In this document: positions 5,608 through 24,153 of the stretch, one piece after another
Layout: every line of letters begins with the position of its first letter
Numbering within the stretch: position 1 is the stretch's first letter
Source of the DNA: a virus
DNA: 27,780 nucleotides
Direction: 5' to 3' (one strand)
Virus record (IMG/VR): IMGVR_UViG_3300047550_006349
Span: 1-27,780 of that record
The notes under the pieces: generated by a model
Databases searched by the model: none
What the model was told of the DNA's origin: nothing
The model's input: only the letters and a program-made list of their open reading frames with translations
Translations under genes and position numbers: made by a program

Positions 5608-5886
5608 TTATCCGCCCATGCTGGCTAATTGTTTATTAATCTCATCTATTTCTGATTGTAAGCTGCTTATTGTATTACTTGCCGATTTGGCGGCAAGTAA
5701 ATCAGATTTTTTTTGGTTTAATAAATTTTTTAAATGATCTTTTTGTTTTTTTTGTTGTACTGGGTCTGGTTTTTGTTGTACGGGTTGTTGCATTGCTGTT
5801 GGTGGCACAGACGTATTGTTAAATTCTTCTAACCTACTCAGCTCTTCTTTTATTAATTGTTTTAAAAAACTTTTTGTTATTTTCAT
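5608..5886 (-). CDS. Small putative internal head protein with capsid-targeting-like N-terminus
   Basis: A 92-residue protein starting MKITKSFLKQLIKEEL. Residues 12-14 are I-K-E, a match to the (Ile/Leu)-X-Glu site cut by T4-type gp21 protease. The middle is Gln/Pro-rich (residues 25-48) and the rest is a predicted coiled coil. It is the first gene after the strong terminator behind the capsid gene and has its own promoter-like motif 18 bases before the ATG, with GAGG as ribosome binding site. Four other small proteins in the window have a related start. I recognise no function-bearing domain; packaging inside the head is an inference. Confidence 0.7.
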   Translation of the reverse strand: MKITKSFLKQLIKEELSRLEEFNNTSVPPTAMQQPVQQKPDPVQQKKQKDHLKNLLNQKKSDLLAAKSASNTISSLQSEIDEINKQLASMGG

Positions 5887-5904
5887 ACTATAACCTCTTG
5901 TGAA

Positions 5905-5912
5905 ATAAGTAG
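5905..5912 (-). promoter_or_regulatory. Candidate late promoter motif (CTACTTAT) after the capsid terminator
   Basis: CTACTTAT on the coding strand, 18 bases before the ATG of the 92-residue protein and 12 bases downstream of the T run of the capsid terminator. A terminator followed at once by a promoter would reset transcription for the neck and tail genes. Confidence 0.42.
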
Positions 5913-5924
5913 TTTTCGGATAAT

Positions 5925-5953
5925 AAAAAACCCCGCCTCTTTTGGAGGCGGGG
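5925..5953 (-). terminator. Rho-independent terminator after the major capsid gene
   Basis: On the coding strand a perfect 9-base-pair stem (CCCCGCCTC / GAGGCGGGG) with a 5-base loop (CAAAA) is followed by six T residues. It begins 25 bases after the capsid stop codon. One of only two strong hairpin-plus-T-run structures in the window. Confidence 0.95.
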
Positions 5954-5977
5954 CAGCTTTTCAGCTTTTAATTTTTA

Positions 5978-7804
5978 CTAACCGAGTAGATCCATCACTA
6001 CGCAGAGGCCGTACATGTCTGGGCGAACCATCGCCTTACCATAACGGGTCATAACAGCCTTACGTGGTGTAAAGGTGTCTGGATCGAAGATGGTTGGTGT
6101 GGTTTGTAGTGGAACGTATGGTGAGTATACGTAGCCGCTTTCGAGGAAGCTTGCACCCTTACGACCAACGAGGATTACTGAACGTGGGAAGTATGGGTCA
6201 ACGATTACGTCGAACTTGGCATTTAGAGCGCCAACCTTAACTGCACCGGTTGAGCCTTTTTCGCTATCGTGTGTAACGGTAGCGCGGAAGCCAGCGGTGA
6301 ATTCAAGGATGTTTGCAACTTCTGGTGAAACAACGATGAAGTTTGCACCACCGCGTAGTGTTTTACGGTGGATGTTAGCTGATACGTCGTTGATTGTTTC
6401 TAGTAGTGTTTCGTACCACATTGAAACGTTACCAGTGAAATCTGGTGGGTAGGTTGGACCGCCGCCGACTGCTGATAGATCAGCGCCAGTGTTGCGATTT
6501 ACGAACTTACCGGGACGGCGTGACCAGTACTTAACGCCAGCGGTTGCGCCCTTGACTAGATCGTTTAGGATTTCTTGATCAATTTCAAGACCGATTTGTT
6601 CTGATAGAATTGAAGTTAATTCTACTTCGGCATCGAGGTTGTGGTAAGCGTTTAGGTCTTGGCCGAGTTCTGGAGTCCAAGCTGCCTTGAGCTTACGGGT
6701 ACGGGCAGTGATTGAGAAGCTGTCAACCTTGAGTTGGATCTCAGGGATGTTAGCGCTGTTTTCTAGTGACCAAGGTGAGGTACCAGCAAGTGCGCCGAGA
6801 ACGCTGTTACCAGTGCTGTCGGTTACGCCAGTGAGCTTATCTTTGATTGGAATTTCAACTACTAGTGAACCAACTGAACCAGTAGCAAAATCATCGCCAG
6901 CAGCAAATGAAACTGATGATGAGTGGAGGAATACCATTTCAACGTACTTGGTGCCGAGTGTATCAGCAGCAGCGTAAACGCCAGCGCCTTCAACAACTTT
7001 GGTTAGGCGGCGAACTGGTTGAGCAAGTAGACCAGCTGCTGAAGCAAGTGAACCTGCTGATGTGCCAACGCCAGCTGCTGCTGAGCCTGAAGCGATTGAG
7101 ATTGAGGTTAGATCTTGTTCGGCAATTAATGCACCAGCAGTGGTAAGTGATGATACTGGGAAGCGAACAACAACCGCCTTCTTGGTGGTTTCTGCGAGAA
7201 GATCTGGGTCTTCGCGGAGTAGAGCTGCGCCAGCATCGCTTGGAGCAGAAAGATCAACTGATGCAGTGATTGCAACAACTGATGTACCAGCAAGAGTTTC
7301 AGCATAACGAGCAGTACCGTAACCGCTGGTTAGTGCGAAGAAACCTTTTTCAGCGTAAGCGTTACCGTCTACGCGAACACCTTGACGAATTTGTTCACCG
7401 ACGCGATCACCGAATAGTGATTCACCTTGGGTGATAACTTTGTCGTCTGATAGACCAAGATCGTTACCATGACGGAAGTCCATGAAGAATACTAGACCTG
7501 ATGGTAGGCTCATTGGTTGTACTGAGACTAGATCGTTGGCGATAAGGCCAGCAAATACGCGGCGTACGATTGGGAACGCAACAGCTGCGAAACCTTGTAC
7601 GTCACCACCTGACATGGTGTTAGCTTCGCGGAGTAGTTCTTTGGCTTGGTTTTCAAGTAACATAGCCATTGAACCACGTTGGTATTCGTCACCGATACCT
7701 TCGAGTAGACCTGAAGCTTCCCACTTGCTTACTAGTGCTGCACTTTCTTTTCTTTTGTCTTGGAAGACTGTGCCTTCCGTAAGACGTTCTAATACGTTAG
7801 CCAT
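5978..7804 (-). CDS. gp23: Major capsid protein (gp23-like)
   Basis: This 608-residue protein is the main subunit of the head shell. The segment at about residues 75-110 is the best marker: F-P-I-V-R-R-V-F, then L-V-S-V-Q-P-M-S-L-P-S-G and a F-M-D-F strand, as in T4-type gp23. The N-terminal 60 residues are charged and helical and end L-R-E at 58-60. Cleavage there by gp21 would leave a mature chain starting at Ala61, close to the T4 cut after residue 65. It is longer than T4 gp23 (521 residues), probably through an Ala/Ser/Thr-rich insertion around residues 150-330. Its base composition is visibly richer in G+C than its neighbours. It follows the scaffold gene by 27 bases with a good GAGAGGA site, and ends at a strong terminator. 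Confidence 0.96.
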   Translation of the reverse strand: MANVLERLTEGTVFQDKRKESAALVSKWEASGLLEGIGDEYQRGSMAMLLENQAKELLREANTMSGGDVQGFAAVAFPIVRRVFAGLIANDLVSVQPMSLPSGLVFFMDFRHGNDLGLSDDKVITQGESLFGDRVGEQIRQGVRVDGNAYAEKGFFALTSGYGTARYAETLAGTSVVAITASVDLSAPSDAGAALLREDPDLLAETTKKAVVVRFPVSSLTTAGALIAEQDLTSISIASGSAAAGVGTSAGSLASAAGLLAQPVRRLTKVVEGAGVYAAADTLGTKYVEMVFLHSSSVSFAAGDDFATGSVGSLVVEIPIKDKLTGVTDSTGNSVLGALAGTSPWSLENSANIPEIQLKVDSFSITARTRKLKAAWTPELGQDLNAYHNLDAEVELTSILSEQIGLEIDQEILNDLVKGATAGVKYWSRRPGKFVNRNTGADLSAVGGGPTYPPDFTGNVSMWYETLLETINDVSANIHRKTLRGGANFIVVSPEVANILEFTAGFRATVTHDSEKGSTGAVKVGALNAKFDVIVDPYFPRSVILVGRKGASFLESGYVYSPYVPLQTTPTIFDPDTFTPRKAVMTRYGKAMVRPDMYGLCVVMDLLG

Positions 7805-7831
7805 AATATGTTTTCCTCTCTAATGAGATTG

Positions 7832-9055
7832 TTATTTTTTGATTCCTGCGAGAATCCGCCAGCGATCCGTTGATGGATCTACTGTGCCTGACGTTCTTGG
7901 TAGAAATGGACTTGGAGCTTTACTTAACGCTTCAGACAATGATTGTGGTACTGCGCGCTTTTCAACTACAGTTTGCATTGTCTTTTGTAAGGTTTCATAA
8001 ACCGTCTTTGCTTCATCTACCGTGGCTGCATTTGAAATGGCTTCGGCAATCTGGTCACGCTGCCGCTCATTTAGGGAGGCATTTCTTAGAGCCTTATTTG
8101 AATAAAGTAAACGTGCGTTGATAAGGTTTACTTCATTAAGTTTTTGACTAAATTGTTCAAAGCTTTCTTTTAATTGAACATTGACAGAAACAGATTTTTT
8201 AAGTTTTGCTTTTGTTTCTGTTAGGGAAACTTTTGATTCAGTTAATTGTTCTTTAGTTAAATTTAATTCTTCTTGTAATGATTCAATTTCAGCGTCTTTC
8301 ACTATTAAATGTTCTTTTAAATCTTCTAATTGCGCAGCTAAAGCTTTTGCAATATTCATTTGACGTTTAACTTCAATGTGGTTTCCTTGAACGCCGCCGG
8401 GAACAACATTTTCCATGTCTAATTGAATTTCTTCTTTAAGAGAATCATCTAGTTCAAAAGACTCTTCTAGAGACTCTTCTTCTTCTTCTTCTTCTTCTTC
8501 TTCTTCTTCTTCTTCTTCTTGATGTTGAATTTCTGGATACGCGCCGCCTTTTGGAGTACCGCCTTTTGGAGTACCGCCTTTTGTAGCAGGAGTAGAAGTT
8601 TCATATTTTTCGCCAGAAGTTTTAGCTTGTTCGGCAAGAGTATCAGTTGCGATACGTGTTGTTGGTTGTGGAGCAACACTTGGTTCTGAAACAGCTGACG
8701 GTTGATCTACGATATGTAGTTCTTTTTTCATAGCATCAACTTTTTCTACTAATGAATCAAGGTCTAAGTCGATTTCTTCCATGTTATTTTCACCAAGATA
8801 TGCTGGTGGGATTTTATCTACTGTTTTTTTGGCAGCTTCAGAAGGTTCGCTGGCGTCTAAACCTAATCCTAAATCTGGAGTTGGAGCGGCGGCTGCTAAT
8901 GGATCGGCTGCTGGTTCATCTTGTTCTAAAAGCATTTCAATACTTTGTTTTATTTTAGATGAATACTTTTCTAATAGGGCAGCTTCTGCGTTTCTACGTG
9001 CTGTTTCTTTTAGTGTTTTTGCATCAATGATGGCTTGTTCAAGCAATGAAGACAT
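7832..9055 (-). CDS. gp22: Prohead scaffold (core) protein, gp22-like
   Basis: This 407-residue protein should form the inner scaffold on which the prohead assembles and which gp21 then degrades. It lies directly upstream of the capsid gene, as in T4. It is very acidic and helical, with a coiled coil at about residues 235-300, and has many (Leu/Ile)-X-Glu sites, including L-L-E at residues 4-6. The middle has a run of 15 Glu and a T-P-K-G-G pentapeptide repeat. The C-terminus ends in a short basic segment after R-W-R-I-L-A-G-I-K-K, suited to touching the capsid protein. T4 gp22 is shorter (about 269 residues), which the low-complexity middle explains. A promoter-like motif stands 31 bases upstream of the ATG. 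Confidence 0.85.
   Translation of the reverse strand: MSSLLEQAIIDAKTLKETARRNAEAALLEKYSSKIKQSIEMLLEQDEPAADPLAAAAPTPDLGLGLDASEPSEAAKKTVDKIPPAYLGENNMEEIDLDLDSLVEKVDAMKKELHIVDQPSAVSEPSVAPQPTTRIATDTLAEQAKTSGEKYETSTPATKGGTPKGGTPKGGAYPEIQHQEEEEEEEEEEEEEEESLEESFELDDSLKEEIQLDMENVVPGGVQGNHIEVKRQMNIAKALAAQLEDLKEHLIVKDAEIESLQEELNLTKEQLTESKVSLTETKAKLKKSVSVNVQLKESFEQFSQKLNEVNLINARLLYSNKALRNASLNERQRDQIAEAISNAATVDEAKTVYETLQKTMQTVVEKRAVPQSLSEALSKAPSPFLPRTSGTVDPSTDRWRILAGIKK
8476..8520. repeat. Trinucleotide microsatellite, (GAA)n on the coding strand
   Basis: Fifteen uninterrupted CTT units on the plus strand, coding for a run of 15 Glu (14 GAA plus one GAG) inside the scaffold gene. Being a triplet repeat, changes in copy number would keep the reading frame. 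Confidence 0.97.
8544..8583. repeat. 15-base tandem repeat coding for T-P-K-G-G
   Basis: Two full copies (8544-8558 and 8559-8573) and a partial third of a 15-base unit, plus-strand CCGCCTTTTGGAGTA. It lies in the scaffold gene next to the Glu run and gives K-G-G-T-P-K-G-G-T-P-K-G-G. Confidence 0.92.
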
Positions 9056-9086
9056 ATAACTACCTCAATATTCTACAACTTTGTAA

Positions 9087-9094
9087 ATAAATAG
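9087..9094 (-). promoter_or_regulatory. Candidate late promoter motif (CTATTTAT) before scaffold and capsid genes
   Basis: CTATTTAT on the coding strand, 31 bases upstream of the scaffold ATG in a 66-base gap. It is the natural place for a promoter serving the scaffold-capsid pair, which ends at the terminator at 5925-5953. Confidence 0.5.
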
Positions 9095-9121
9095 TGCTAA
9101 ATAATCCAAAAAGCAATAAAC

Positions 9122-9796
9122 TTATGGATAAATTAATCTAAACCACTTGCAGCTGTTATCCCTTGGATCTTTCATTGCGTGCAATACAACAGCATCATAT
9201 TCACCAGCAGGTCCGGGTATACTTATAAACGCAGTACTCCCATCTATTGTTTGGGAGTTAATAGGCTGAATAATAGTAAAATACCCATTATTCATTTGTT
9301 TAAAATAAAATAATTTATTTAAAACTTTATCATTATAAACATCAGGCAAATATAAATAAATATTTCCATTAACACTACTTGGATCAGAATAATATATTTC
9401 AAATAAATTTTCCGAATCCATGTAAAAGACACTGCTTGTCACAACAGTATAATTGTGCGTATTTGTTGTCGCCTGTTGATTATTATCGCCTCCTGCGTTA
9501 GGATTAGCATTTGATAATAAGTCTGTTCCATTGTAAAAGATTGTCCCACCGGTAATATAAAGATTACTTGCTGTTATATTTCCAATAGAACCAGAAACGG
9601 AGGCGTTTATTACCAAAGTGTCTGCGTTGCTACTACCAAGAATTATATTGTTTTTAAAATTAGCATTAGCGTTAACTACAAGATTGTCTACTGATATATT
9701 GTTATTTTCTAATTCTGTTCCAATAGTGAAATTATCCGCATTTACGGATGCCATCGAAACAGAACCAGAAATATTAACATTATCTAATATTTTCAT
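9122..9796 (-). CDS. Fibre-like virion protein, possibly a head fibre
   Basis: A 224-residue protein in two parts. Residues 1 to about 105 are repetitive and beta-prone with regularly spaced hydrophobic and Asn residues (N-I-S-G-S-V, I-I-L-G-S-S-N-A-D-T-L-V-I-N-A, S-G-S-I-G-N-I-T-A-S-N-L). This is typical of trimeric phage fibre shafts. After a polar linker rich in Asn and Gln, residues 115-224 form a compact beta domain ending K-W-F-R-L-I-Y-P. It lies between a decoration-like gene and the scaffold gene, not with tail genes, which suggests a fibre on the head surface. Its start is 2 bases after the preceding stop. The fibre character is seen; the location on the head is inferred. Confidence 0.6.
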   Translation of the reverse strand: MKILDNVNISGSVSMASVNADNFTIGTELENNNISVDNLVVNANANFKNNIILGSSNADTLVINASVSGSIGNITASNLYITGGTIFYNGTDLLSNANPNAGGDNNQQATTNTHNYTVVTSSVFYMDSENLFEIYYSDPSSVNGNIYLYLPDVYNDKVLNKLFYFKQMNNGYFTIIQPINSQTIDGSTAFISIPGPAGEYDAVVLHAMKDPRDNSCKWFRLIYP

Positions 9797-9798
9797 TT

Positions 9799-10203: not shown

Positions 10204-10214
10204 TTATATTACCT

Positions 10215-10487: not shown

Positions 10488-10868
10488 TTATTTTGCCTTT
10501 CCGCCCATTAGGGCGTTCCATATTTTTTTATTGCCGTTCATTAGTTTGCTTATATCAACGCCGGGATCGCTTGGGTCTATATCTTTTAATGGTCCAGTGT
10601 TTGGTCCAGTGTTTGACGCTTGAGATTCTGTTAATGGTTTTGTACCAGAAAATGGATCAAATTTATTATTCACATAACCGCTTTTGCCGATTTCATCAAG
10701 CATACGTTTTCTTTGTTCGTTTACTTGTGTAGACGGTTTTACTTTTTCAATAGCTGGTGGTTGCTTTGATTCGGAAATAAGTTTTGCTAAGCCCTCTTCT
10801 AAAAGAACTTCTTTTATGCACTCTTTTATTAATGGCTTGATAATGCTTTTTAGTTCTTTTGTATTCAT
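10488..10868 (-). CDS. Small putative internal head or core protein with repeated N-terminal motif
   Basis: A 126-residue protein starting MNTKELKSIIKPLIKECIKE, a variant of the N-terminal helix found on four other small proteins here. An I-K-E site falls at residues 14-16 and L-E-E and I-S-E sites follow by residue 33. The rest is polar and rich in Pro, Lys and Ser, with a short C-terminal helix (I-W-N-A-L-M). It begins just after the protease gene, its ATG overlapping that gene's end region, and is followed without gap by the bS21-like gene. I know no function for it. Its position in the prohead cluster and the protease-type sites point to a core or internal protein. Confidence 0.68.
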   Translation of the reverse strand: MNTKELKSIIKPLIKECIKEVLLEEGLAKLISESKQPPAIEKVKPSTQVNEQRKRMLDEIGKSGYVNNKFDPFSGTKPLTESQASNTGPNTGPLKDIDPSDPGVDISKLMNGNKKIWNALMGGKAK

Positions 10869-10869
10869 A

Positions 10870-11472
10870 TTAGCCGCCTAGTATTTTACTAACTAGATCA
10901 TTTAATCTGTTATTTTTAGATTCTTTCATAAGACGTTCTTTGGCTTCTTTTACCATATATGCGTTTGGCGTACTTGGCTCCGAAACCATATCAAAACAAA
11001 TAAGCTGAAAATCATCATCAACGACAGTTACGCCGCCTATTTGATGTGTAGAGCCAAGGCCACGCGAACTAATACCAAGCTTTACGCCACTTTCAACAAG
11101 GGATTTTAATATTTGACCACTTGGAGTTGGTAACACCTTTAATTTACCCATAACAGCCGATCCTTCCCACCAAGTTTTTACTATCAAGTGGGAGGTGTTT
11201 TTTAGATTTATCACTGAGCTTTCTGGGTGGTCCAACTCACCAAGAGCGCGATTTTCCGAAATAACTGATTGATATCTTTCAATTTCGCGACGTAATATTT
11301 TTTCGCTATATTTACGACCGTTTCCGTTCTTTACATCTGCTTCTTGAATTTTGCCAGTAAGATACATTGTGCCATTATTTTTAGCATCAAGCTTCTCGCC
11401 CTCAGTTAAAAAATCTTGGCATGTTCCGTTTGGACATAATTCAAAAAATTCACGTAATAATTGATTATTCAT
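10870..11472 (-). CDS. gp21: Prohead maturation protease (gp21-like)
   Basis: A serine protease of 200 residues that cuts scaffold, capsid and internal proteins after (Ile/Leu)-X-Glu inside the prohead. Seen here are the catalytic histidine in G-E-L-D-H-P (His82) and the serine motif G-I-S-S-R-G (Ser135/136). A conserved F-D-M-V-S-E-P (Asp161) lies near the end of the domain. T4 gp21 has about 212 residues. The frame is open further upstream to a TTG at 11487. I chose the ATG at 11472 because it overlaps the stop of the 36-residue gene (TAATG) and has GGTGG in front of it. L-R-E at residues 6-8 is a possible self-cleavage site. Confidence 0.92.
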   Translation of the reverse strand: MNNQLLREFFELCPNGTCQDFLTEGEKLDAKNNGTMYLTGKIQEADVKNGNGRKYSEKILRREIERYQSVISENRALGELDHPESSVINLKNTSHLIVKTWWEGSAVMGKLKVLPTPSGQILKSLVESGVKLGISSRGLGSTHQIGGVTVVDDDFQLICFDMVSEPSTPNAYMVKEAKERLMKESKNNRLNDLVSKILGG

Positions 11473-11582
11473 TATTGTTTCCACCAAATTGCGGGCGCAA
11501 CCCGCACGTTACTGCTTCCAGAACAGCAACGGCGTACTGGTTGTAACATGTAGCGACGAACAAAAGTTACTTGTTTTCTCAT
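11472..11582 (-). CDS. 36-residue gene overlapping both neighbours, function unknown
   Basis: A short reading frame coding for 36 residues: start MRKQVTFVRRYMLQP, then V-R-R-C-C and end A-I-W-W-K-Q. Its ATG overlaps the stop of the upstream 142-residue gene (ATGA, 11579-11582) and its TAA overlaps the ATG of the protease (TAATG). GGGAAGGAAG stands 4 bases before its ATG. This arrangement of a strong ribosome site and stop/start overlap on both sides is hard to explain unless it is translated. Without it the 107-base stretch between its neighbours would be empty in an otherwise packed cluster. The product is basic with six Arg, two adjacent Cys and two adjacent Trp. I do not recognise it; a small core protein like T4 gp67/gp68 is possible by position only. 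Confidence 0.75.
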   Translation of the reverse strand: MRKQVTFVRRYMLQPVRRCCSGSSNVRVAPAIWWKQ

Positions 11583-12007
11583 TTATCTTCCTTCCCGCTA
11601 AATTCTAGAATTTGTTTTTCTATCCTGCTGCTAAAACGAATATGTGCAGGGGTAGAATCAAACCAATTTATAGCATTACCATCTATTGTAAAACCAAATT
11701 CACCAATAGGAGTTACACGACCACTATTTCTTGTGTCTTTATCGTTAAATTGCAATAAATAAACGTTCTTGCCATCTGTTAGAAATAGCTCACCTTCGAC
11801 ATCTTTCGGTCCAGCTACTTCGCCTGATAGTTCATATGGTTCACGACCCTGATATGGCTGATAAGTTCTATTATCAATAGGTTGGCCGTCTGGATAATTT
11901 TTTGTATAGCCATAACCGGGGTATACGTTTCCTTCCCCGGCTCTTGCTGGCATACCGCCTATTTCTTCCATTATTAGCTTCTTTAATTGGTTTTTAGATA
12001 TTTTCAT
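11579..12007 (-). CDS. Putative internal head protein with capsid-targeting-like N-terminus
   Basis: A 142-residue protein starting MKISKNQLKKLIMEEI, with the I-M-E protease-type site at residues 12-14. The next part is Gly/Pro/Tyr-rich (Y-P-G-Y-G-Y-T-K-N-Y-P). Residues 60-142 look like a small beta domain with a T-D-G-K-N-V-Y-L-L-Q-F strand and T-P-I-G-E-F-G-F-T-I-D-G. No ribosome binding site is visible before the ATG; instead a CTATTTAT motif stands only 6 bases upstream. The stop overlaps the 36-residue gene (ATGA). Function unknown. Location directly before the protease and the N-terminal motif suggest a head-internal protein. Confidence 0.72.
   Translation of the reverse strand: MKISKNQLKKLIMEEIGGMPARAGEGNVYPGYGYTKNYPDGQPIDNRTYQPYQGREPYELSGEVAGPKDVEGELFLTDGKNVYLLQFNDKDTRNSGRVTPIGEFGFTIDGNAINWFDSTPAHIRFSSRIEKQILEFSGKEDK
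11587..11596 (-). promoter_or_regulatory. Strong ribosome binding site for the 36-residue gene
   Basis: GGGAAGGAAG on the coding strand, ending 4 bases before the ATG at 11582. It lies inside the last codons of the 142-residue gene and supports calling the small gene. Confidence 0.7.
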
Positions 12008-12024: not shown

Positions 12025-12297
12025 TTATTTTTTATTAGTTTTTATATTTATAAGAATACCTTCATCATCAACAAGTCGACTTATAAAATACGATGTTCCG
12101 CTTGATATACACCCTGCTATAAAAGTATTAAATGGAAGCTCAAAAAAGCATATTGCATTTAATACGCCTATCCAGAAACCCATACACATTGGGCAGCGAA
12201 AGAAATGATATTGCGGTCTAATAGCATCAAAAATTTTGCCATAGACCGCAATCATTGTCGCGCCATAACAAGCTAAAATAAAAGTTAATAAAATCAT
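12025..12297 (-). CDS. Small membrane protein with C-P-M-C-M-G-F-W motif
   Basis: A 90-residue protein with hydrophobic segments at residues 1-18, about 38-55 and about 57-72. Between the first and second is R-C-P-M-C-M-G-F-W-I-G. The C-x-x-C-x-G-F-W combination is shared with small membrane proteins of the DUF1360 type and, in my memory, with a family common in aquatic T4-like phages. The paired Cys could bind a metal or form a disulphide. Its ATG shares one base with the stop of the upstream gene (TAATG), so translation is probably coupled. No function can be named; its presence in a head-gene cluster is odd for a membrane protein. Confidence 0.65.
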   Translation of the reverse strand: MILLTFILACYGATMIAVYGKIFDAIRPQYHFFRCPMCMGFWIGVLNAICFFELPFNTFIAGCISSGTSYFISRLVDDEGILINIKTNKK

Positions 12298-12857
12298 TAT
12301 TTATTTTTTCTTTCAAGTTTTAGCATTGATCTTGCCTGTTGTTCATTAGACCCGCCAATAGATCCTTTAACTTTATCTTCTAAAGCTTTGATGGAATCTG
12401 TTACAGCGGCGATTTTGTTATATATTTCGCCTCCTTCTTTTTTTGCTGGGAACGGGATTGTTTCAATCCTTGGTCCAGCGTCTGTATCAATTTCTCTTGT
12501 TGTTTTTTTTGTTTTAAGTATTTTCTCTAGTTGGTCAAGAGAAGTGTACATATCGGCAATGCTTTTATCAAAAGATTTGATAACAGAATCAAAATTGTTT
12601 AAAAAAATCTGATCTTGCTTTCTTTTTTCAGCAAATTCTTTTTCGCCTGTTCTTTTTTGTTTCTCAACTTCTCGCGCATCCGCTGCACTAGAAAGTTTAC
12701 CGCCTAACTCAGTAGCTCTTTTTGAAATTCCTCTTAACGCGCTTGTTCCCGCGTCTCTAATTGTATCCAAAAAAGCTTCGTCGATTTCGCCTTCTTCTAA
12801 CATCTTTTGAATTTCTTCTTGAATAATTGCTTTGACTTGCGATTCTTTAATAACCAT
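12297..12857 (-). CDS. Putative internal head or core protein with capsid-targeting-like N-terminus
   Basis: A 186-residue, strongly charged and helical protein starting MVIKESQVKAIIQEEI, with I-Q-E at residues 12-14 and L-E-E soon after. Residues 30-75 are rich in Ala, Arg, Lys and Glu, and residues 80-175 look like two coiled helices separated by a Pro/Gly segment (R-I-E-T-I-P-F-P-A-K-K-E-G-G). There are no Cys or Trp residues. A strong AGGAGA site precedes the ATG. It lies between the portal and the protease, where T4 has the core proteins gp67 and gp68. Role as a prohead core or packaged protein is inferred from position and the N-terminal motif. Confidence 0.72.
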   Translation of the reverse strand: MVIKESQVKAIIQEEIQKMLEEGEIDEAFLDTIRDAGTSALRGISKRATELGGKLSSAADAREVEKQKRTGEKEFAEKRKQDQIFLNNFDSVIKSFDKSIADMYTSLDQLEKILKTKKTTREIDTDAGPRIETIPFPAKKEGGEIYNKIAAVTDSIKALEDKVKGSIGGSNEQQARSMLKLERKNK

Positions 12858-13433: not shown

Positions 13434-14251
13434 TATGCTTTTACCTCATGCAAAAATTGCTGCACATACATAACCTTTTTTATTAAATCATCATTAATTT
13501 CTGAGAATTTAAAAGAATTAAGTGACTCATTGATTTTTGCAACATTTCCTGTTGTATCAGAATTTTTTACTTGCTCAAGGTCTGACTTGAGTCTTGTTAT
13601 TTCTTCATTTAAATAAACTTTAAATTCTAGATCGTCCTCTGAGTGGTTAATATATTTTGTTAATAATTCTTTTTGTTCTTCCAAAAGTGATTCATTATAT
13701 GTTTCATTAAAACGATCAACAAATCTATTAATTACAGTAGCGTCATAAACATCAGTTTTTTTATTTTCAGTTATTAGTTTACCAGTGATGTTACCTAATA
13801 GTTCTTGCTCTAACAAAACTTTTTGTTTTGCTTCTACGTTTTTATTAAAAATTTGCGAAATCGTTGCAAGAGTTTTATAGTTTGGCACGAAATTATCATA
13901 AACTTTTGCACCAAATGATTTATTTACTTTAGCTATAAGGCGACTTTGTTCGTTATATATATCGTTTTCGTTTAACTTATCGTGTTCTTGTTTTACAGCA
14001 TCAATAAGTTTTTCGGCTATTTCTTTAGGAAAATCTTTTGTTTCATAAAGCTGCTTATAAAGACATAACTCTTTATTTAAAACGTTGTTTTTATTAAAAA
14101 ATTCTTTTATTAAACCAGATATTGCAATTTGTTTATGTTTTTCTTCGTAAATTACAGCTTTTGTTAATTCTTTTACTAATGATTCAAATAAAAAAGCTGT
14201 ATTGCGTTTTTTGTTATGTTTATGTTTTGGCTTTTCTAGCTTATTTTGCAT
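13433..14251 (-). CDS. Helical protein next to portal, possible prohead core protein
   Basis: A 272-residue, almost wholly helical and highly charged protein. It begins with a His/Lys-rich stretch (P-K-H-K-H-N-K-K-R) and then N-T-A-F-L-F-E-S-L-V-K-E-L-T-K-A. Many Leu/Ile-X-Glu sites are present (L-N-E, L-E-Q, L-L-E, I-N-E). Its start overlaps the end of the portal gene by 11 bases. In T4 the genes directly after the portal encode the core proteins gp67 and gp68, which gp21 degrades; this protein holds the matching place. I recall similar proteins in other aquatic myophages, always unnamed. The core-protein role is inferred. Confidence 0.68.
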   Translation of the reverse strand: MQNKLEKPKHKHNKKRNTAFLFESLVKELTKAVIYEEKHKQIAISGLIKEFFNKNNVLNKELCLYKQLYETKDFPKEIAEKLIDAVKQEHDKLNENDIYNEQSRLIAKVNKSFGAKVYDNFVPNYKTLATISQIFNKNVEAKQKVLLEQELLGNITGKLITENKKTDVYDATVINRFVDRFNETYNESLLEEQKELLTKYINHSEDDLEFKVYLNEEITRLKSDLEQVKNSDTTGNVAKINESLNSFKFSEINDDLIKKVMYVQQFLHEVKA

Positions 14252-16103
14252 CCTTTTTCTCCAAAGCTGTCACCAGATTTTTTATATCCTGATTGACTTC
14301 ATGCAATCTTTTTTCGTTTTCGTCTTCTTTATAAGTAGTTTCTCTGTAGAGAGAAGCCATTGATTCATAGCCGGGAATCATAGTTCTAGCTGTATTTCTT
14401 CTAGCGCCCTCTGGATGGGCTTCTGACCGCATCCAAGATGCTACTTTTTTGGAATCGGAGCTTCTCATATCTGGTTTATCATCGCGGCGCTTAGCTGCTG
14501 GTAATTCTTCTACTGATAATGGTCCTTCCTCTTTTTCTGGCGTTTCACCAGCACCACCAGCGCCACCAGCCAAAGCTGCTGCTTCATCCCCGCCACCAGC
14601 GCCACCTAAACCAGCTTCTGCGCCAGCACCAGCTTCTGCCCCAGTAGCAATTGTTTCAAGTGATTTTTCAAATTGTTTATCGTAATATATTTCACGTTGA
14701 ATTTTCTTAAATTCCATCTCAGAAAGATTGAAAACATTTTCCGAAATCCAGCGTTTGCTAAAGAATCCATCTTTTGCCTGACCAGCAACTTCAAACTTAG
14801 TTTTCCAGTGTTCAAGTTCTTGTAACTCTGAAATCTTAGATGGATTATTTAGCGATAAGCTAAAGTTTAATAAATCTTCATTTCTATAGCCAAGTGTAAA
14901 TAAATGAATAATGCCAATCTTTTCAAGTTCGGCTACAAGCACTCTTTGTAATCTTTGAATAGTTCTTGCAAAACGAATATCTTTTTGAGCTAATGTTGTC
15001 TTGTCTTCTGACGCTTTATCATCGCGTGCAAGATAACTTTGTGGAATTTTAAGTGCGGAGAATAATTTATCGCGCAAATATTTTACGTCTTCAATGTCGC
15101 CAACGAAATTTCCACCATTTAGTGTATCAATCTTTGTATTTGAAGATCCACGAGTTGGAACGAAATAATCTTCGTCAATGCTCATTGGATTATAACGAAG
15201 ATCAACACGCCCAGTTGATGGATCAACAATCATGTTACGCTTCATTTGTGCTTGAATTTTTAACATGTATTGTTCAACGTCTTCTGGAGCAATATTTCCA
15301 ACATCAATATAGAATACACGACGATCTGGCGCACGAACGATGCGATATGCCATCATGGCATCTTCTAGGAGGTTTAATTGACGCCAAATACGACGGGCTG
15401 GTTCTAATACGCTTGTTCCATATGGTGCGTATTTGTCTTGTCCAAGAATACGGAAATGTGCAATTTGCCAATTTTCAAAAGTTAAACCACCGCTATTCCA
15501 TTGAAATTGCACATAGTTAGGATTTGTTTTATCTTGTCCTTCAAGACGCTCTACTTCTTGCGAAGGAAGACCAATTGCATTACGAATACCGAGTTCTGGG
15601 TCTATTTCAAGATAGAGAAACATATCGCCAAACTTACACATCGTTCGGCACCAACCAAAAAGATTGAACTCAATATTTAATACATCATAATAAAGTGATT
15701 CAAGAATACCTCGTATCTCTTGATTAGAAGATTTAATGTGTAGCATTTTATTCATGCTACTGTGCGTTGTCATTTCATCGGCATAAATATCAAGAGTGCT
15801 AGCTATTTCAGGAGTATATTCCATTTGATCAAAGTCGCTATAACGTTCTGCGCGAGTTTGATTTGCCATAATATTGGCTTGAATTGCATCAAATGGGTTA
15901 TAGCTTGTTCTTTGAAATTGTTTACCGCTTGCGCTATTAAAATTAAATTTATTTAAATCACGACGACGAAATCTTAACTGCGCCTGTTGTCTAAAATTAA
16001 CAAGCGGACCAGAAAATAATCTAGTTAAACTTTTAAAAAGTGGAGATTCGGGATTCTTTATGTTTTTATTAAACTTTCCACCTTTGTTTTGCTGATTTGC
16101 CAT
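14241..16103 (-). CDS. gp20: Portal vertex protein (gp20-like)
   Basis: This 620-residue protein should form the ring at one head vertex through which DNA enters and leaves. It lies directly after the large terminase, as expected. The sequence has portal-family features: Y-S-D-F-D-Q-M-E-Y-T-P-E-I-A-S-T-L-D-I-Y-A-D-E near residue 90-112, a wing region with W-C-R-T-M-C-K-F-G-D-M-F-L-Y-L-E, and a R-R-V-F-Y-I-D-V-G-N strand. The clip and stem region contains Y-L-R-D-K-L-F-S-A-L-K-I-P-Q-S-Y-L. T4 gp20 has 524 residues. The extra length is a Gly/Ala/Glu-rich low-complexity segment at about residues 475-520 and a charged C-terminal tail. Confidence 0.92.
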   Translation of the reverse strand: MANQQNKGGKFNKNIKNPESPLFKSLTRLFSGPLVNFRQQAQLRFRRRDLNKFNFNSASGKQFQRTSYNPFDAIQANIMANQTRAERYSDFDQMEYTPEIASTLDIYADEMTTHSSMNKMLHIKSSNQEIRGILESLYYDVLNIEFNLFGWCRTMCKFGDMFLYLEIDPELGIRNAIGLPSQEVERLEGQDKTNPNYVQFQWNSGGLTFENWQIAHFRILGQDKYAPYGTSVLEPARRIWRQLNLLEDAMMAYRIVRAPDRRVFYIDVGNIAPEDVEQYMLKIQAQMKRNMIVDPSTGRVDLRYNPMSIDEDYFVPTRGSSNTKIDTLNGGNFVGDIEDVKYLRDKLFSALKIPQSYLARDDKASEDKTTLAQKDIRFARTIQRLQRVLVAELEKIGIIHLFTLGYRNEDLLNFSLSLNNPSKISELQELEHWKTKFEVAGQAKDGFFSKRWISENVFNLSEMEFKKIQREIYYDKQFEKSLETIATGAEAGAGAEAGLGGAGGGDEAAALAGGAGGAGETPEKEEGPLSVEELPAAKRRDDKPDMRSSDSKKVASWMRSEAHPEGARRNTARTMIPGYESMASLYRETTYKEDENEKRLHEVNQDIKNLVTALEKKDAK

Positions 16104-18245: not shown

Positions 18246-19121
<876 letters not shown>

Positions 19122-19903: not shown

Positions 19904-20289
19904 CTTTTCTTTGGCCTACCTTTTTTCTTTTCTGCTACTCCTGTCTTTTGAGCCACTTCTTTTTTATATTTTTCTTTGTTTTCTTCGGCCAGTTTTACAA
20001 GCTGTTCTGCTTCTTTTTGTATTTTTTCTTGCTCTTGCTTCTTTTTTGCTTCTTTTTGTTCTTCTATTTGTTTTTCTTTTAAAGCTTTTTCTGCCTCTAG
20101 TTTTGCTAATTCTTCTTTTTTTAGTCTTTCGGCTTCTTCTTTTGCTTTATTCTCTTTATCTTGTTGAGATTCTGTTGCAACTTCACTTTTTACGTGTTCT
20201 TTCCAAGCTATAAGCGCAATAACAACGCCAGCAACGATAGCCCAAACCCATTTTTTAGCACCAGAGAACATATTTTTGATAGTTTCCAT
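19900..20289 (-). CDS. Membrane-anchored coiled-coil protein with AT-hook-like tail
   Basis: A 129-residue protein with one N-terminal transmembrane segment (about residues 14-29, W-V-W-A-I-V-A-G-V-V-I-A-L-I-A-W). An extremely charged Lys/Glu/Gln coiled coil follows (residues 35-115), and it ends K-K-G-R-P-K-K-R. The G-R-P core with flanking basic residues looks like an AT-hook. The layout resembles TolA-type or Rz-type bitopic proteins. The start shares one base with the stop of the putative holin gene (TAATG) and the end overlaps the spanin-like gene (ATGA). It could be the inner-membrane partner of a spanin pair, or a protein that holds DNA near the membrane. Neither is established. Confidence 0.58.
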   Translation of the reverse strand: METIKNMFSGAKKWVWAIVAGVVIALIAWKEHVKSEVATESQQDKENKAKEEAERLKKEELAKLEAEKALKEKQIEEQKEAKKKQEQEKIQKEAEQLVKLAEENKEKYKKEVAQKTGVAEKKKGRPKKR

Positions 20290-20546
20290 TATTTACCCGC
20301 AGCCTTCCATTTTGCAGCAAGATCGGCAACGCCTTGTACGCCGATATAACCTAGAGAAATACCCATCCACTCATCTGGCGTTATTTTGCCAAAACCTAAA
20401 AATCCTGTAGCAACAATCCAAACAAGTAGCTTACGAGAAAGAACTTTCTCTGAGAGAACATCAACAAAACCAACACCTTCTTTTTCGGCCTGTTTCATTT
20501 CTTTTTTAACCTCTTCTTTCATATCGTCAATTATACCCATACTCAT
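20289..20546 (-). CDS. Putative holin, two membrane segments
   Basis: An 85-residue protein with a charged N-terminal helix (residues 6-25) and two hydrophobic segments. The first is at about residues 38-53 (K-L-L-V-W-I-V-A-T-G-F-L-G-F-G) and the second at about 59-78 (W-M-G-I-S-L-G-Y-I-G-V-Q-G-V-A-D). A short Lys-rich tail follows. Size, topology and the G-K-I-T-P-D-E-W link are typical of small phage holins. It lies 8 bases downstream of the Mre11/Rad50 gene and overlaps the membrane coiled-coil gene. A lysis group is suggested by the spanin-like gene two positions on. No endolysin is present in the window, which weakens the call. Confidence 0.55.
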   Translation of the reverse strand: MSMGIIDDMKEEVKKEMKQAEKEGVGFVDVLSEKVLSRKLLVWIVATGFLGFGKITPDEWMGISLGYIGVQGVADLAAKWKAAGK

Positions 20547-20554
20547 ACTTCCTC

Positions 20555-23500
20555 CTATTGGTTTACGTAAGCAAAATTTCCCTGTCTATCTATGTTAATT
20601 TGCATATCAACTGCGTCTTTGAGCGCATCAAGATGCGAAATTAGTAACACTGTCTTAAAATACCCCTTAATTAGTTCCAAGATGCGAATAAAACCAGCCA
20701 GATTATCATTGTCTAGCGCTGTTCCCGGTTCATCTAAGATTATGATATCGCTTTTTGGTAAGCTAGTAACGTTTAAAAAAGCCAATCTGATAGCGATTGA
20801 GGCAAGTGATTTTTCTGCTCCACTACCCATTTCTAGTGGGCGGGCATCATATTTTGGATGCTTGATCATAATATCCAGCTTATCATCATCGTTTACAAGG
20901 AATATTTGAAATTCTACTACGTTAGCTAACATTTTATTTATTTCTGCATTAATAACTGGTAATTTGTCCTTGATAACTTGATAAGAAATACCGTTTGGAT
21001 GCATTGCTTTCAAGTATAGATCATAAGCAGCAAACTCTTTACGTTTTTCTGCTAGTTCCATTTTTTGCTCTTCTAATGTTTCTAAAGTAGAAACATGATA
21101 GCCACTTTCTTTATAAAGAGTTGTAATTTTTTGTTGAATACGGCTTGTTTCTCCCTCTAAATCGTTTATTTTGAGCTTACAAGCTTTTTCATTTTCTTGT
21201 AATTTTTGAAGTGTAGCAACTAAATCTTTTTTTAGTTCTAGTTGAGCTAGTTTTTCATTGCAATCTTTTAATGAGCTATTTGTGCTTAGGAGCTTTTCTT
21301 GTTGTCTTTCAAGATCAAGACGTAGATTTTCTGTTTGTAAATCAATTTTAGATTGTAAAGCAATAGCAGAATTATACGAAGCAATTTTTTTATTCAAATC
21401 TTCTAATCTGCTTTGATCTAGAGCTAGTCTTTTTTCGTTTACTTTTGTAGATAGTTGTACAAGTTGTTGTTCAATACTAGGTTTTTGCTCCTTAGCTGAA
21501 AATGCATCCCTAATAAACTTACAGGATGAATATTCATCGCCACATGGGACATCGGAAAGCAAAGAAATACGCTTTGTTAAATCATTGTTGGATTGTGAAA
21601 CGAGTTTATAGTCTGATTCAAGACGCGACAACTCTTTACTATCGGCATCAATAGAAGCTTTTTCTCTTAAAACAGCTTGAATATCGATTAACAAATCAGC
21701 AGCGATGCTCTCGCTTTTTTGTTGAAGCTCTTTAATAGATGATTCTATCTGCTTTATTTTATTCTCTACTAAATTTACTGTTTCTTCAAGAGTTTTCTTA
21801 TTTTCTAGCAGTTCAGATGGCGATCCAATATCCATCTTCATGCTCTTAATCGTTGTAACAAGTTCAAGAAGCTCATCACGCTTTTTTGAAAGAGCCAATT
21901 GAACAATTTCTGATAGCTCTTTTTGTTCTTTTATGTTATTTTCGCTTTTCTTTATTTCTTCTTTTGTTTTTTCAATTTCCGAATCATAGTCAACGGTGTC
22001 TAGTTTTTTGAGTACAGCCTTAATCTCAGAGGCTTCGCCCTTTGCAAGCTTGAACTTGGCTTCAAAAATGTCCAAATCAAGAAACTTAGCAAGAATAGCC
22101 TTGCGTTGTGTTGAACCTTCACCAATAAAAGCAAGGGAATTTAACTGGCTTGCCATAGATGTCAAAAGAAAGTCATCAACCGTTCCAACAAATCTACGGA
22201 TATTTTTATCAGTATCACTACGGTCCAAACCATTATGAAGATCTTCGGATTCCTCTGAGAAAATAACATCTGTTTTAGCCTCTACGGTTTCAGCGCCCTT
22301 GCTTTTTTTGATATATTTTTCACTTGTGCGTTCAATAGAATATTCGTTTCCATTGATATCAAATACAATCTTTCCACGACCTTTTTCTCGATTTTGGTTA
22401 ATGATATTTAAGTTCTTACGATTATTTTTTGAGGTTGTATTAAAAACCGTATACATCAACGAATCAATAACTGATGATTTGCCAGTATAATTTTTACCAA
22501 ATATACCAACAACGCCATTTAGTTTATCAAAATCAAGCTTATTTCCTTCTCCATAATTAAAAAGATTGTCCCACTCAAGAGATTTAATCTTCCAATTTAT
22601 GTTTCTAGCAACTTCTTCGCCCTGTTCTACTTCGGAATTAAACCGCTTATTCATATCAAAGATTTTTTCTAATGCCTCATTGTCAGGATTATAATCCTTT
22701 AGATATGAACGAATTATTTCCTCTTGTACAGCCAAATCGCGAAGATTCATCGTTTTTGATAGGCTAGAAACCTCTTGTAGATTTTCCTTGCCTTCGACGC
22801 TTTTGTTTACATACGTTACGCTCTCTGGTTTAAAGCGCGTTTTGGCTGCATCAATAGCATTTTTTACTCTATCAACAGATAGATTGTTGCGCGATACTAA
22901 CCGAATACGCGATCCTTTTGGCAAATTGATACTATCACCAATTTCACCTTCTAGACCAAGTTCAATAGTAATAAATGGTCTTGGGTTGGGAATACAAATA
23001 TGCCGAACATCAAAAATGTTCTTATCTCTTATATTCCAAATAAGGAAACCCTTATCGTCTGTTTCACCAAAGTTCTGTTGTAATGTTGACCCAGCGTAGC
23101 GCATACGTCCATCTGGATCTACTTTTTGATTAGCTAAATGAATATCTCCGAGCAATGCATAATCATGGCCTTCAAAAATATCTATAACGTCGTCACCATG
23201 TTCAATAACATAGCCAGTATCTGTAATGACACCATTAATAGAGCCGTGATATAGCGCAATATTAATTCTATCCCGAGATGATGGTTTTACCCATCCTTCC
23301 TTATCAAAAATACTAAGGACATTGAACGATAGAGTATCATTAACAATATATTCGCCACTATTTTTATAAAGCGTAATACGTGGATTGTTTAATGCCGTGA
23401 CAATTGGCGAAATTGCATCTTGTCGATTACTATTACGTAGGTTCCCGTCGTGGTTTCCTAAAATAATATGTAGTGGAGCAATTTCTGCTAAGTTTGTAAA

Positions 23501-23692
23501 GAAATTGCCGCACATATCAACAAATTCTGGGCTGATCTGAGTTTTTGTATGAGCAATATCGCCCGTGTGAACAATATAATCTACTTTTTCGTTACGTAGA
23601 TGCTCATAAATTTTTTCAAATACTTGTGTATATTCATCATGTTGCTTTAGCGATTTTATATGTGTGTCCGACAGATGGCAAATTTTGGGCAT
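20555..23692 (-). CDS. gp47-gp46: Fused Mre11-Rad50 type nuclease-ATPase (gp47-gp46 fusion, SbcCD-like)
   Basis: One 1045-residue chain combining two proteins that are separate in T4. Residues 1-310 are an Mre11/SbcD/gp47 phosphoesterase, with motifs S-D-T-H (Asp9, His11), G-D-x-x-H (Asp45, His48), G-N-H-D (80-82), Y-H-G-S and G-D-I-H. From about residue 375 there is a Rad50/SbcC/gp46 ATPase: Walker A G-K-N-Y-T-G-K-S (Lys405), two long coiled coils, signature G-S-G-A-E-K-S (about 957), Walker B I-I-I-L-D-E-P-G (about 985) and I-S-H-L-D. The coil apex holds C-x6-C (Cys717, Cys724) instead of the usual C-x-x-C zinc hook. In T4 the complex resects DNA ends for recombination-dependent replication. 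GAGG precedes the ATG; a terminator lies just upstream. Confidence 0.92.
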   Translation of the reverse strand: MPKICHLSDTHIKSLKQHDEYTQVFEKIYEHLRNEKVDYIVHTGDIAHTKTQISPEFVDMCGNFFTNLAEIAPLHIILGNHDGNLRNSNRQDAISPIVTALNNPRITLYKNSGEYIVNDTLSFNVLSIFDKEGWVKPSSRDRINIALYHGSINGVITDTGYVIEHGDDVIDIFEGHDYALLGDIHLANQKVDPDGRMRYAGSTLQQNFGETDDKGFLIWNIRDKNIFDVRHICIPNPRPFITIELGLEGEIGDSINLPKGSRIRLVSRNNLSVDRVKNAIDAAKTRFKPESVTYVNKSVEGKENLQEVSSLSKTMNLRDLAVQEEIIRSYLKDYNPDNEALEKIFDMNKRFNSEVEQGEEVARNINWKIKSLEWDNLFNYGEGNKLDFDKLNGVVGIFGKNYTGKSSVIDSLMYTVFNTTSKNNRKNLNIINQNREKGRGKIVFDINGNEYSIERTSEKYIKKSKGAETVEAKTDVIFSEESEDLHNGLDRSDTDKNIRRFVGTVDDFLLTSMASQLNSLAFIGEGSTQRKAILAKFLDLDIFEAKFKLAKGEASEIKAVLKKLDTVDYDSEIEKTKEEIKKSENNIKEQKELSEIVQLALSKKRDELLELVTTIKSMKMDIGSPSELLENKKTLEETVNLVENKIKQIESSIKELQQKSESIAADLLIDIQAVLREKASIDADSKELSRLESDYKLVSQSNNDLTKRISLLSDVPCGDEYSSCKFIRDAFSAKEQKPSIEQQLVQLSTKVNEKRLALDQSRLEDLNKKIASYNSAIALQSKIDLQTENLRLDLERQQEKLLSTNSSLKDCNEKLAQLELKKDLVATLQKLQENEKACKLKINDLEGETSRIQQKITTLYKESGYHVSTLETLEEQKMELAEKRKEFAAYDLYLKAMHPNGISYQVIKDKLPVINAEINKMLANVVEFQIFLVNDDDKLDIMIKHPKYDARPLEMGSGAEKSLASIAIRLAFLNVTSLPKSDIIILDEPGTALDNDNLAGFIRILELIKGYFKTVLLISHLDALKDAVDMQINIDRQGNFAYVNQ

Positions 23693-23701
23693 TAATACCT
23701 C

Positions 23702-23734
23702 AAAAATAAAATGGCCCTGCTACTAACAGGGCCA
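23702..23734 (-). terminator. Rho-independent terminator between the primase operon and the Mre11/Rad50 gene
   Basis: The coding strand has an 8-base-pair stem (TGGCCCTG / CAGGGCCA by complement) with a 7-base loop, followed by TTTTATTTTT. It begins 26 bases after the stop of the 130-residue gene and ends 9 bases before the next ATG. Confidence 0.92.
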
Positions 23735-23760
23735 AGTATACTACAAGTTGCGATACTTTT

Positions 23761-24153
23761 CTACTGATCTTCTCCGCGTTCTTCTCGCTTAACTAAATTA
23801 TCTAGCATTTGTTTGATTTCTTCGATTTCTTTTTGAACACGATCCATATCATCAAGTGCTGTCTTGAATTGTTCTTGTGACATTACTGATATTTTTGCTT
23901 TTGGCATTTCATCATATGCTTTTATTCTTTTACGTAATTTTTCGCCTTCCTCCACAAATATATCAGCTATATTTTGTAAACTCATTTCTTCTTCCGGAAC
24001 TGGTCCGGTCGGATCTTCATAAGTTCGTTCTGTTGAGCGAAGACTAACATGCTCTGGATCGTCTAGGTATGGATCTGATTCATACTCAGATGGTTTTGCT
24101 TCTTGTATAGTTTCAACTATAAGTTTTTTAAGTGTGGTTCTGTTTAATTTCAT
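23761..24153 (-). CDS. Putative internal head protein with capsid-targeting-like N-terminus, in the replication region
   Basis: A 130-residue acidic protein starting MKLNRTTLKKLIVETI, with I-V-E at residues 12-14 and I-Q-E at 16-18. The next 40 residues are Asp/Glu/Pro-rich (D-P-Y-L-D-D-P-E-H, E-D-P-T-G-P-V-P-E-E-E), followed by helical segments ending in a coiled coil with K-R-E-E-R-G-E-D-Q. It is the last gene before a strong terminator and 10 bases downstream of the primase. It is the only member of the N-terminal motif group that is not in the head-gene cluster. I recognise no domain. A packaged protein is the main hypothesis; a small partner of the primase is the alternative. Confidence 0.7.
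   Translation of the reverse strand: MKLNRTTLKKLIVETIQEAKPSEYESDPYLDDPEHVSLRSTERTYEDPTGPVPEEEMSLQNIADIFVEEGEKLRKRIKAYDEMPKAKISVMSQEQFKTALDDMDRVQKEIEEIKQMLDNLVKREERGEDQ

What the first reader, a model, noticed from the sequence alone, without database searches (positions are those of the whole stretch)
5608..24153. A family of small proteins shares an N-terminal peptide with an Ile-X-Glu site at residues 12-14, a likely capsid-targeting and gp21-cleavage tag
Four proteins begin MKITKSFLKQLIKEEL (5608-5886), MKISKNQLKKLIMEEI (11579-12007), MVIKESQVKAIIQEEI (12297-12857) and MKLNRTTLKKLIVETI (23761-24153). In all four an Ile-X-Glu falls at exactly residues 12-14. A fifth (10488-10868) has a variant with I-K-E at 14-16. 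Beyond this tag the proteins are unrelated. Established: T4 internal proteins carry a short N-terminal capsid-targeting sequence (MKTYQEFIAEA type) that gp21 removes after Ile-Ala-Glu. Inference: these are cargo proteins packed in the head and trimmed by the gp21 encoded here, possibly ejected into the host. Four of the five lie in the head-gene region (three beside the protease, one just after the capsid gene); the fifth, after the primase, would be the best test.
Basis: partly seen in the sequence, partly recalled or inferred. Interest (0 to 1): 0.75.

Follow-up and report, generated by a model that had tools for sequence, protein, structure and literature searches.

The report
Address tags on phage head cargo
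Hundreds of otherwise unrelated small proteins in uncultured T4-like water phages begin with the same 14-residue peptide, which very probably sends them into the new virus head and is then cut off, so it marks a large unexplored set of proteins that these viruses may inject into bacteria.

Summary
A profile of the first 16 residues (consensus MKITKSQLKQIIKEEL) scores 13.6-41.6 bits on the four and below -28 on every other window gene; 1.45 Mb of reversed sequence gives no hit. The tag occurs in at least 120 IMG/VR stretches on 354 distinct bodies (267 clusters), up to 17 genes per 8 kb, with no conservation after residue 22. Tags chosen on residues 2-10 alone keep [ILVM]12-x-E14 in 272 of 273 cases: the gp21 consensus. 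Fifteen of 17 tag contigs of 100 kb or more encode gp21. In a gp21-anchored sample, half of the tags lie within 1 kb of gp21.

I found a second tag, MKLLLENWRKFLNE, whose phi-phi-x-E motif also ends at residue 14. Several body families carry tag 1 in one phage and tag 2 in another, once with homology resuming exactly at residue 15.

Best reading: capsid-targeting propeptides that work like T4's CTS but show no sequence homology to it. Packaging, cleavage and injection remain unproven.

The parts
5608..5886 (-). Tag-1 protein (92 aa) directly after the capsid gene; other gp21-anchored loci also have tagged genes about 5-7 kb after gp21
   Evidence: Profile score 41.6; tagged genes at +5 and +6 kb of gp21 in relatives such as L296, L299, L307
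5845..5886 (-). Tag 1, residues 1-14 (MKITKSFLKQLIKE), predicted cut after E14
11579..12007 (-). Tag-1 protein (142 aa) directly upstream of gp21, between portal and protease (position of T4 gp67/68)
   Evidence: Score 33.1; nine orthologs in which M1, K2, I12 and E14 are the only invariant tag residues
11966..12007 (-). Tag 1, residues 1-14 (MKISKNQLKKLIME)
   Evidence: predicted helix 5-16 at low confidence
12297..12857 (-). Tag-1 protein (186 aa), degenerate tag with a second phi-phi-x-E at E22|G
   Evidence: Score 13.6; relative in L302 with MIISESQVKAIISEEIKKMIAEG
12816..12857 (-). Tag 1, residues 1-14 (MVIKESQVKAIIQE)
23761..24153 (-). Tag-1 protein (130 aa) after the primase, with T at residue 15
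   Evidence: Score 15.0; similar tag MKLDKKTLKKLIIETL in L106; weak PHROG hit to a virion structural protein family, E = 0.0012, over a coiled-coil-like stretch
24112..24153 (-). Tag 1, residues 1-14 (MKLNRTTLKKLIVE)
10488..10868 (-).
10870..11487 (-). gp21-type prohead protease (Peptidase_S77), the predicted processing enzyme
   Evidence: PF03420 E = 2e-29; phrog_207 head maturation protease E = 6e-56
11401..11412 (-). phi-phi-x-E site FLTE|G in the N-terminal part of gp21 (candidate self-cleavage site, conserved as DLLTE|E/D/A in relatives)
5978..7804 (-). gp23-type major capsid protein
   Evidence: PF07068 E = 6e-73
7622..7636 (-). Predicted gp23 processing site LLRE|A, residues 57-61
   Evidence: Aligned with the same site in relatives: LLRE|A/Q/S, ISE|A
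7832..9055 (-). Putative scaffold (gp22 position), with poly-Glu run; possible docking partner of the tag
   Evidence: Position between gp21 and gp23; no family hit; inference
14241..16103 (-). Portal protein (gp20)
   Evidence: phrog_213 E = 6e-73

Best explanation
Residues 1-14 are a capsid-targeting propeptide. They form a short amphipathic helix that docks the protein onto the assembling prohead core (scaffold or protease), so the protein is enclosed with the core. The gp21-type protease encoded in the same phage then cuts after the phi-phi-x-E motif, at E14 and/or at a second site at residue 21/22, and frees the body inside the head. Tag 2 (MKLLLENWRKFLNE) is an interchangeable address of the same length. 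Bodies near the head genes may be core components. Bodies in distant arrays are probably cargo that travels with the DNA into the host. Shown here: the tags, their spread, their link to gp21, the near-invariant cleavage motif, and tag exchange. Inferred: docking, packaging, cleavage, injection.
For: Conservation stops after residue 16 (weak to 22) while bodies fall into 267 clusters. Selected on residues 2-10 only, 272 of 273 tags keep [ILVM]12-x-E14, with E14 near 100% and E15 only 87%. Synonymous codons vary much as in the bodies and a Shine-Dalgarno is present, so selection is mainly on the peptide. gp21 in 15 of 17 tag contigs of at least 100 kb; length-matched 17/33 versus 4/27 random contigs, p = 0.006. 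In 80 gp21-anchored loci, 64 tags, all on the gp21 strand, reversed control 0; 27 of the 55 ATG-start tags within 1 kb of gp21, p = 2e-8. gp23 and gp21 of the same phages carry phi-phi-x-E sites LLRE|A/Q/S and LLTE|E/D/A. Tag 1 and tag 2 replace one another on the same bodies. T4 CTS experiments (PMC9026906): a 10-residue N-terminal peptide suffices for packaging, and gp21 cuts after [LI]-x-E.
Against: No protein evidence of packaging or cleavage. The residue after E14 is Glu in about 85%, unlike the gp23 site (A, Q, S) although like the predicted gp21 self-site. Eighteen tagged proteins carry a further tag core internally or at the C-terminus, which a purely N-terminal signal would not need. 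In jumbo genomes many tagged arrays lie more than 100 kb from the head genes. One 125-kb tag contig (G011) shows no PF03420 or Gp23 match although it holds portal and terminase genes.
Confidence: 0.76

Rival explanations
1. Docking tag without cleavage: the helix binds the scaffold, portal or another virion part and stays on the protein; I-x-E is conserved because those residues make the contact.
For: Conservation covers K2, T4, K5, L8, K9 and I11 as well as I12/E14. Tag cores also occur internally and at C-termini. Glu is the usual residue after E14.
Against: E14 and I12 are the most conserved of the unselected columns, the pair gp21 needs. Tag 2 shares almost nothing else with tag 1, yet puts phi12-x-E14 at the same place in 226 of 267. 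A second [ILVM]xE with A/G/S/Q following is enriched at 21/22.
Confidence: 0.13
2. Address to another compartment or process (tail tube lumen, membrane, host factor, proteolysis adaptor) unrelated to the head.
For: Arrays of tagged genes far from head genes in jumbo phages. Few bodies have known functions.
Against: Tagged genes sit between portal and protease and directly after the protease in many relatives, S77 is strongly enriched in tag contigs, and the motif matches the gp21 consensus.
Confidence: 0.08
3. Mobile 5' leader: a DNA or RNA element (ribosome-binding site plus start region) copied between genes for expression or as a recombination seam, with no role for the peptide.
For: In one jumbo phage bin, tag copies are 79-90% identical as DNA over about 35-63 bases, which could help cassettes recombine.
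Against: Across phages codons vary much as in the bodies, and upstream DNA shows only a Shine-Dalgarno signal and an A-rich start. Residues, not bases, are conserved.
Confidence: 0.02
4. Lineage marker: descent from one ancestral tagged gene with new bodies fused, no present function.
For: Tags are confined to one broad group of S77/Gp23 phages; random S77-positive contigs lacked them.
Against: Strong purifying selection on I12 and E14, and replacement of tag 1 by an unrelated-looking tag 2 on the same body, are not expected of a relic.
Confidence: 0.01

Closest known systems
T4 capsid-targeting sequence (CTS) of internal proteins IPI, IPII, IPIII (MKTYQEFIAE|A type)
   Same: Short N-terminal peptide on otherwise unrelated small proteins; begins Met-Lys; ends in hydrophobic-[IL]-x-E, the gp21 consensus; phage encodes a gp21-type protease (T4 facts from PMC9026906)
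   Different: 14 rather than 10 residues; no sequence homology beyond that pattern; hundreds of body families and arrays of up to 17 genes per 8 kb instead of three genes; two alternative tags; second candidate cut at 21/22; function untested
T4 Alt (packaged ADP-ribosyltransferase with N- and C-terminal gp21-cut propeptides)
   Same: Enzyme-type cargo; some tag bodies are enzymes (GNAT, Nudix, kinase, nucleotidyltransferase) and some proteins have a tag core at the C-terminus
   Different: Alt itself was not found among the bodies
T4 gp67/gp68 prohead core proteins
   Same: Position between portal and protease, as for window 11579-12007 and 12297-12857
   Different: No sequence similarity found; no family hits
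SPN3US/phiKZ ejection proteins with propeptides cut at A-x-E or similar by a related protease
   Same: Proteins packed in the head, trimmed at a Glu by the prohead protease; two short propeptides of 20-24 residues (PMC10052503)
   Different: Most propeptides are 111-254 residues long and are not described as a shared tag; a different phage group

Membership tests
T4-type capsid-targeting sequence (CTS) | N-terminal peptide of 10-19 residues shared by otherwise unrelated proteins | tested here: met
   IC confined to residues 1-16 (weak to 22); 354 bodies in 267 clusters
T4-type capsid-targeting sequence (CTS) | Ends in gp21 consensus [LI]-x-E | tested here: met
   [ILVM]12-x-E14 in 272 of 273 tags selected on residues 2-10 only
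T4-type capsid-targeting sequence (CTS) | Phage encodes a gp21-type (S77) protease | tested here: met
   15 of 17 tag-1 contigs of 100 kb or more; 8 of 8 tag-2 contigs of 140 kb or more; 4 of 32 random contigs. Of the two exceptions, one is cut off before the head genes and one is unexplained
T4-type capsid-targeting sequence (CTS) | Sequence similarity to MKTYQEFIAEA | tested here: inconclusive
   No formal comparison run; by eye only Met-Lys and hydrophobic-[IL]-x-E are shared, 10 versus 14 residues; homology not shown
T4-type capsid-targeting sequence (CTS) | Protein is packaged in the head | not testable with these tools
   No virion proteomics of a tag phage found in the held papers
T4-type capsid-targeting sequence (CTS) | Removed by gp21 during maturation | not testable with these tools
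   Only sequence sites compared
T4-type capsid-targeting sequence (CTS) | Sufficient to direct a foreign protein into the head | not testable with these tools
   Tag exchange on the same bodies is suggestive only
   Profile -53 in register; Ile-Lys-Glu not conserved in orthologs

The most novel reading that the evidence does not exclude
Uncultured T4-type phages, including jumbo phages, run an open, modular cargo-loading system: two interchangeable 14-residue address tags, removed by the prohead protease, let almost any protein be loaded into the head. The phages have used this to build arrays of dozens of fast-changing injected effectors (GNAT acetyltransferases, kinases, Nudix hydrolases, nucleotidyltransferases, NlpC/P60-like peptidases and hundreds of unknown families).
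Probability: 0.5. Interest if true: 0.88.

Novelty: new variant of a known kind. Interest (0 to 1): 0.77.

Why it matters
What a phage carries in its head and injects with its DNA is largely unknown outside a few laboratory phages, because such proteins share no fold and are annotated as hypothetical. If the tag is a head address, it is a sequence-only way to list candidate injected proteins in uncultured viruses: more than 350 here from tag 1 alone. It would show that T4's three-protein CTS is a small case of a general loading device, and it would give new addresses for packing foreign proteins into phage heads. The internal-protein question becomes directly testable by proteomics and simple fusions.

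Tried and rejected
1) Tag as conserved DNA/RNA leader: rejected, codons vary much as in bodies and upstream DNA carries only Shine-Dalgarno and A-rich start signals. 2) Chance: rejected, reversed-sequence controls 0. 3) The fifth protein as a variant tag: rejected on orthologs. 4) Tags in cellular genomes: the 257-Gb scan gave 12 stretches; the ones with several tags look like phage contigs in MAG bins, and one such bin has gp21 on the same contig. 5) Cultured phages with the tag: tblastn with the 20-22-residue peptides gave one uncultured huge phage (LR756508, then 10 tags in 50 kb) and nothing cultured (BLAST's low-complexity filter limits this). Flavobacterium phage immuto has one shortened tag, MKKSQLRQIIKEAL. 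6) Similarity of the tag to other window proteins, including the scaffold: no core score above 7.7 outside tagged proteins. 7) Solved structures: no convincing hit to the peptide. 8) AlphaFold model of 11579-12007: mean pLDDT 55, tag helix 5-16 at low confidence, not used for fold search. 9) Literature: no held paper contains the peptides, or 'capsid targeting sequence' together with metagenomics.

Full report
WHAT WAS CHECKED. The five proteins exist at the stated places on the - strand of a T4-type head and replication region: tail tube and sheath at the low end, gp23, scaffold, gp21, portal and terminase in the middle, SbcC/D-like, primase and RuvC-like genes at the high end (names of tail and replication genes are by reading the sequences). 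Peptidase_S77 (gp21) is at 10870-11487 (E = 2e-29), Gp23 at 5978-7804 (E = 6e-73), portal at 14241-16103. The five proteins have no confident family hit.

THE TAG IS REAL. From 196 hits, per-residue information is high at residues 1-16, weak at 17-22 and nil after 23. Reversed sequence gives nothing, and 474 kb of random viral loci give nothing. In 32 whole random contigs a looser pattern found one near-match (one mismatch, lacking Lys5) that is not a convincing tag. In the bacterial and archaeal genome collection only 12 stretches matched, several of them apparently phage contigs in MAG bins with 14-17 tagged genes per 8 kb; one such bin has gp21 on the same contig. The tag is therefore essentially a virus feature.

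BODIES. 354 distinct bodies form 267 clusters, 238 of them singletons. Of 130 cluster representatives, few match Pfam: a GNAT acetyltransferase, a TseH-like (NlpC/P60-type) domain, a pentapeptide-repeat protein, and DUF6321.

THE CLEAVAGE MOTIF. To avoid circularity, tags were selected on residues 2-10 only. 272 of 273 then have [ILVM]12-x-E14, E14 near 100%, I12 98%, while neighbours K13 (65%) and E15 (87%) vary more. One reservation: most of the contigs were fetched with a pattern that itself required these residues, though each contig holds further tags that the pattern did not select. In nine orthologs of the gene upstream of gp21, most of them fetched through gp21 and not through the tag, M1, K2, I12 and E14 are the only invariant tag residues. 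The published gp21 rule is L/I-x-E (PMC9026906). The same phages' gp23 has LLRE|A/Q/S at the expected processing site, and their gp21 has a conserved DLLTE|E/D/A near its N-terminus. About 43% of tags have a further [ILVM]xE ending at residue 21 or 22 against about 2% background, followed by G, A, Q or S, which resembles the gp23 site more than the Glu after E14 does. Which of the two is cut is open.

LINK TO gp21. Of tag-1 contigs of 100 kb or more, 15 of 17 encode S77. One exception (G050) is collinear with S77-positive relatives and ends about 16 kb before the head genes. The other (G011) has portal and terminase but no PF03420 match and is unexplained. Among 20-75 kb contigs the figures are 17/33 against 4/27 for random contigs (p = 0.006). 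All tag contigs tested that lacked S77 also lacked Gp23 except one fragment, as expected of fragments. Independently, 80 loci found through gp21 itself contain 64 tags in 39 loci, all on the gp21 strand. With ATG starts only, 27 of 55 lie within 1 kb of gp21 (p = 2e-8; loci are related, so the p-value is optimistic). The slot right after gp21 holds different tagged genes in different relatives. In larger genomes tagged genes also form arrays far from the head genes.

A SECOND TAG. Reading that slot revealed another N-terminal peptide, MKLL[LF]ENWRK[YF]LNE. It too is spread over at least 120 stretches. Selected on residues 1-9, 267 cases keep phi12-x-E14 in 226, with no conservation after residue 15 or so. 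Eight of eight tag-2 contigs of 140 kb or more have S77. Its bodies include Nudix, protein kinase, Zeta_toxin, amidase, nucleotidyltransferase, DUF192 and HAD-like domains. Homologs of one, a 5'-nucleotidase, exist without tag 2 in Pelagibacter, Methylophilales and Flavobacterium phages.

TAG EXCHANGE. Several body families occur with tag 1 in one phage and tag 2 in another. L257:9888 (MKITRRQIRQIIAE|ELALDLEVGD) and L412:7074 (MKLLLENWRKYMKE|NIDLDIKVGD) are homologous without a gap from residue 15. L062 and L486 share 77-82% identity over about 190-220 residues. GNAT proteins carry either tag, as do the L197/L474 and L007/L015 families. Two dissimilar peptides of equal length replacing one another before the same bodies is the strongest sign that residues 1-14 act as a unit with one function.

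THE FIFTH PROTEIN. 10488-10868 is one of a conserved family directly after gp21 whose Ile-Lys-Glu is Q or D in 10 of 44 members, though a later V-[IL]-x-E-[ED]-G is kept. It may be a core protein, but it is not a member of this tag.

MECHANISM AND ITS LIMITS. The anatomy (amphipathic helix, phi-phi-x-E end, synteny with prohead core genes, gp21 linkage, exchangeability) fits a capsid-targeting propeptide. In T4 the first 10 residues of IPIII suffice for packaging, targeting depends mainly on residues 4 and 7, and processing on 8 and 10 (PMC9026906). The present tags work like that but are not shown to be homologous, so I do not file them as members of the T4 CTS family. That the freed bodies are injected is inference by analogy with T4 IPI and Alt. 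Internal and C-terminal tag cores in 18 proteins show that the helix is not used only at N-termini; some of these cases may be fused neighbouring genes.

NOVELTY. No held paper contains either peptide, and none holds 'capsid targeting sequence' together with metagenomics; subscription papers and preprints were not searchable.

Noticed in passing
L239, L233, L234, L388, L397, L406, L444, L454 and others: Second N-terminal tag MKLLLENWRKFLNE on about 109 clusters of bodies in the same kind of phages; not found in the held papers.
   Followed up: yes
L130, L132, L129 (8 kb each, in MAG bins): 14-17 tag-1 genes per 8 kb in phage-like contigs binned as Halobacteriovorax, Methylococcaceae and Peribacter; tag copies 79-90% identical as DNA within one genome, suggesting cassette shuffling.
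   Followed up: partly
L086:365-952, L122:484-1611, L120:4376-5434, L037:4972-5511, L035:11263-12033: Proteins with a second tag core internally or at the very C-terminus; either fused neighbouring genes or true multi-tag proteins.
   Followed up: partly
10488-10868 and the gene after gp21 in L294-L368: Conserved family M..ELKK.LKPLIKECIKEVIFEEG directly downstream of gp21; unannotated likely core or assembly protein.
   Followed up: partly
20555-23692: One 1045-aa ORF that reads like a fusion of an SbcD-type nuclease (gp47) and an SbcC-type ATPase (gp46), normally two genes.
   Followed up: no
7832-9055 and 18246-19121: Homopolymer runs: a long poly-Glu in the scaffold and a poly-Gln run in the 291-aa protein.
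   Followed up: no
L117:5550-6104, L197:7934-8323, L474:7523: Cys/Lys/Arg-rich C-terminal modules (one matching DUF6321) attached to tagged proteins and, by PHROG matches, to the C-terminus of large phage proteins.
   Followed up: partly
L226-L232 (G011, 125 kb): A tag-1 contig with portal and terminase genes but no detectable S77 protease or Gp23; possible diverged protease.
   Followed up: partly
L283-L292 (Microcystis phage Mel-JY01, about 60.3 and 60.9 kb): Two proteins starting MIKLKSLL[KQ]EIISDRVWHLT, a leader resembling the tag core in front of a possibly ADP-ribosyltransferase-like body.
   Followed up: no
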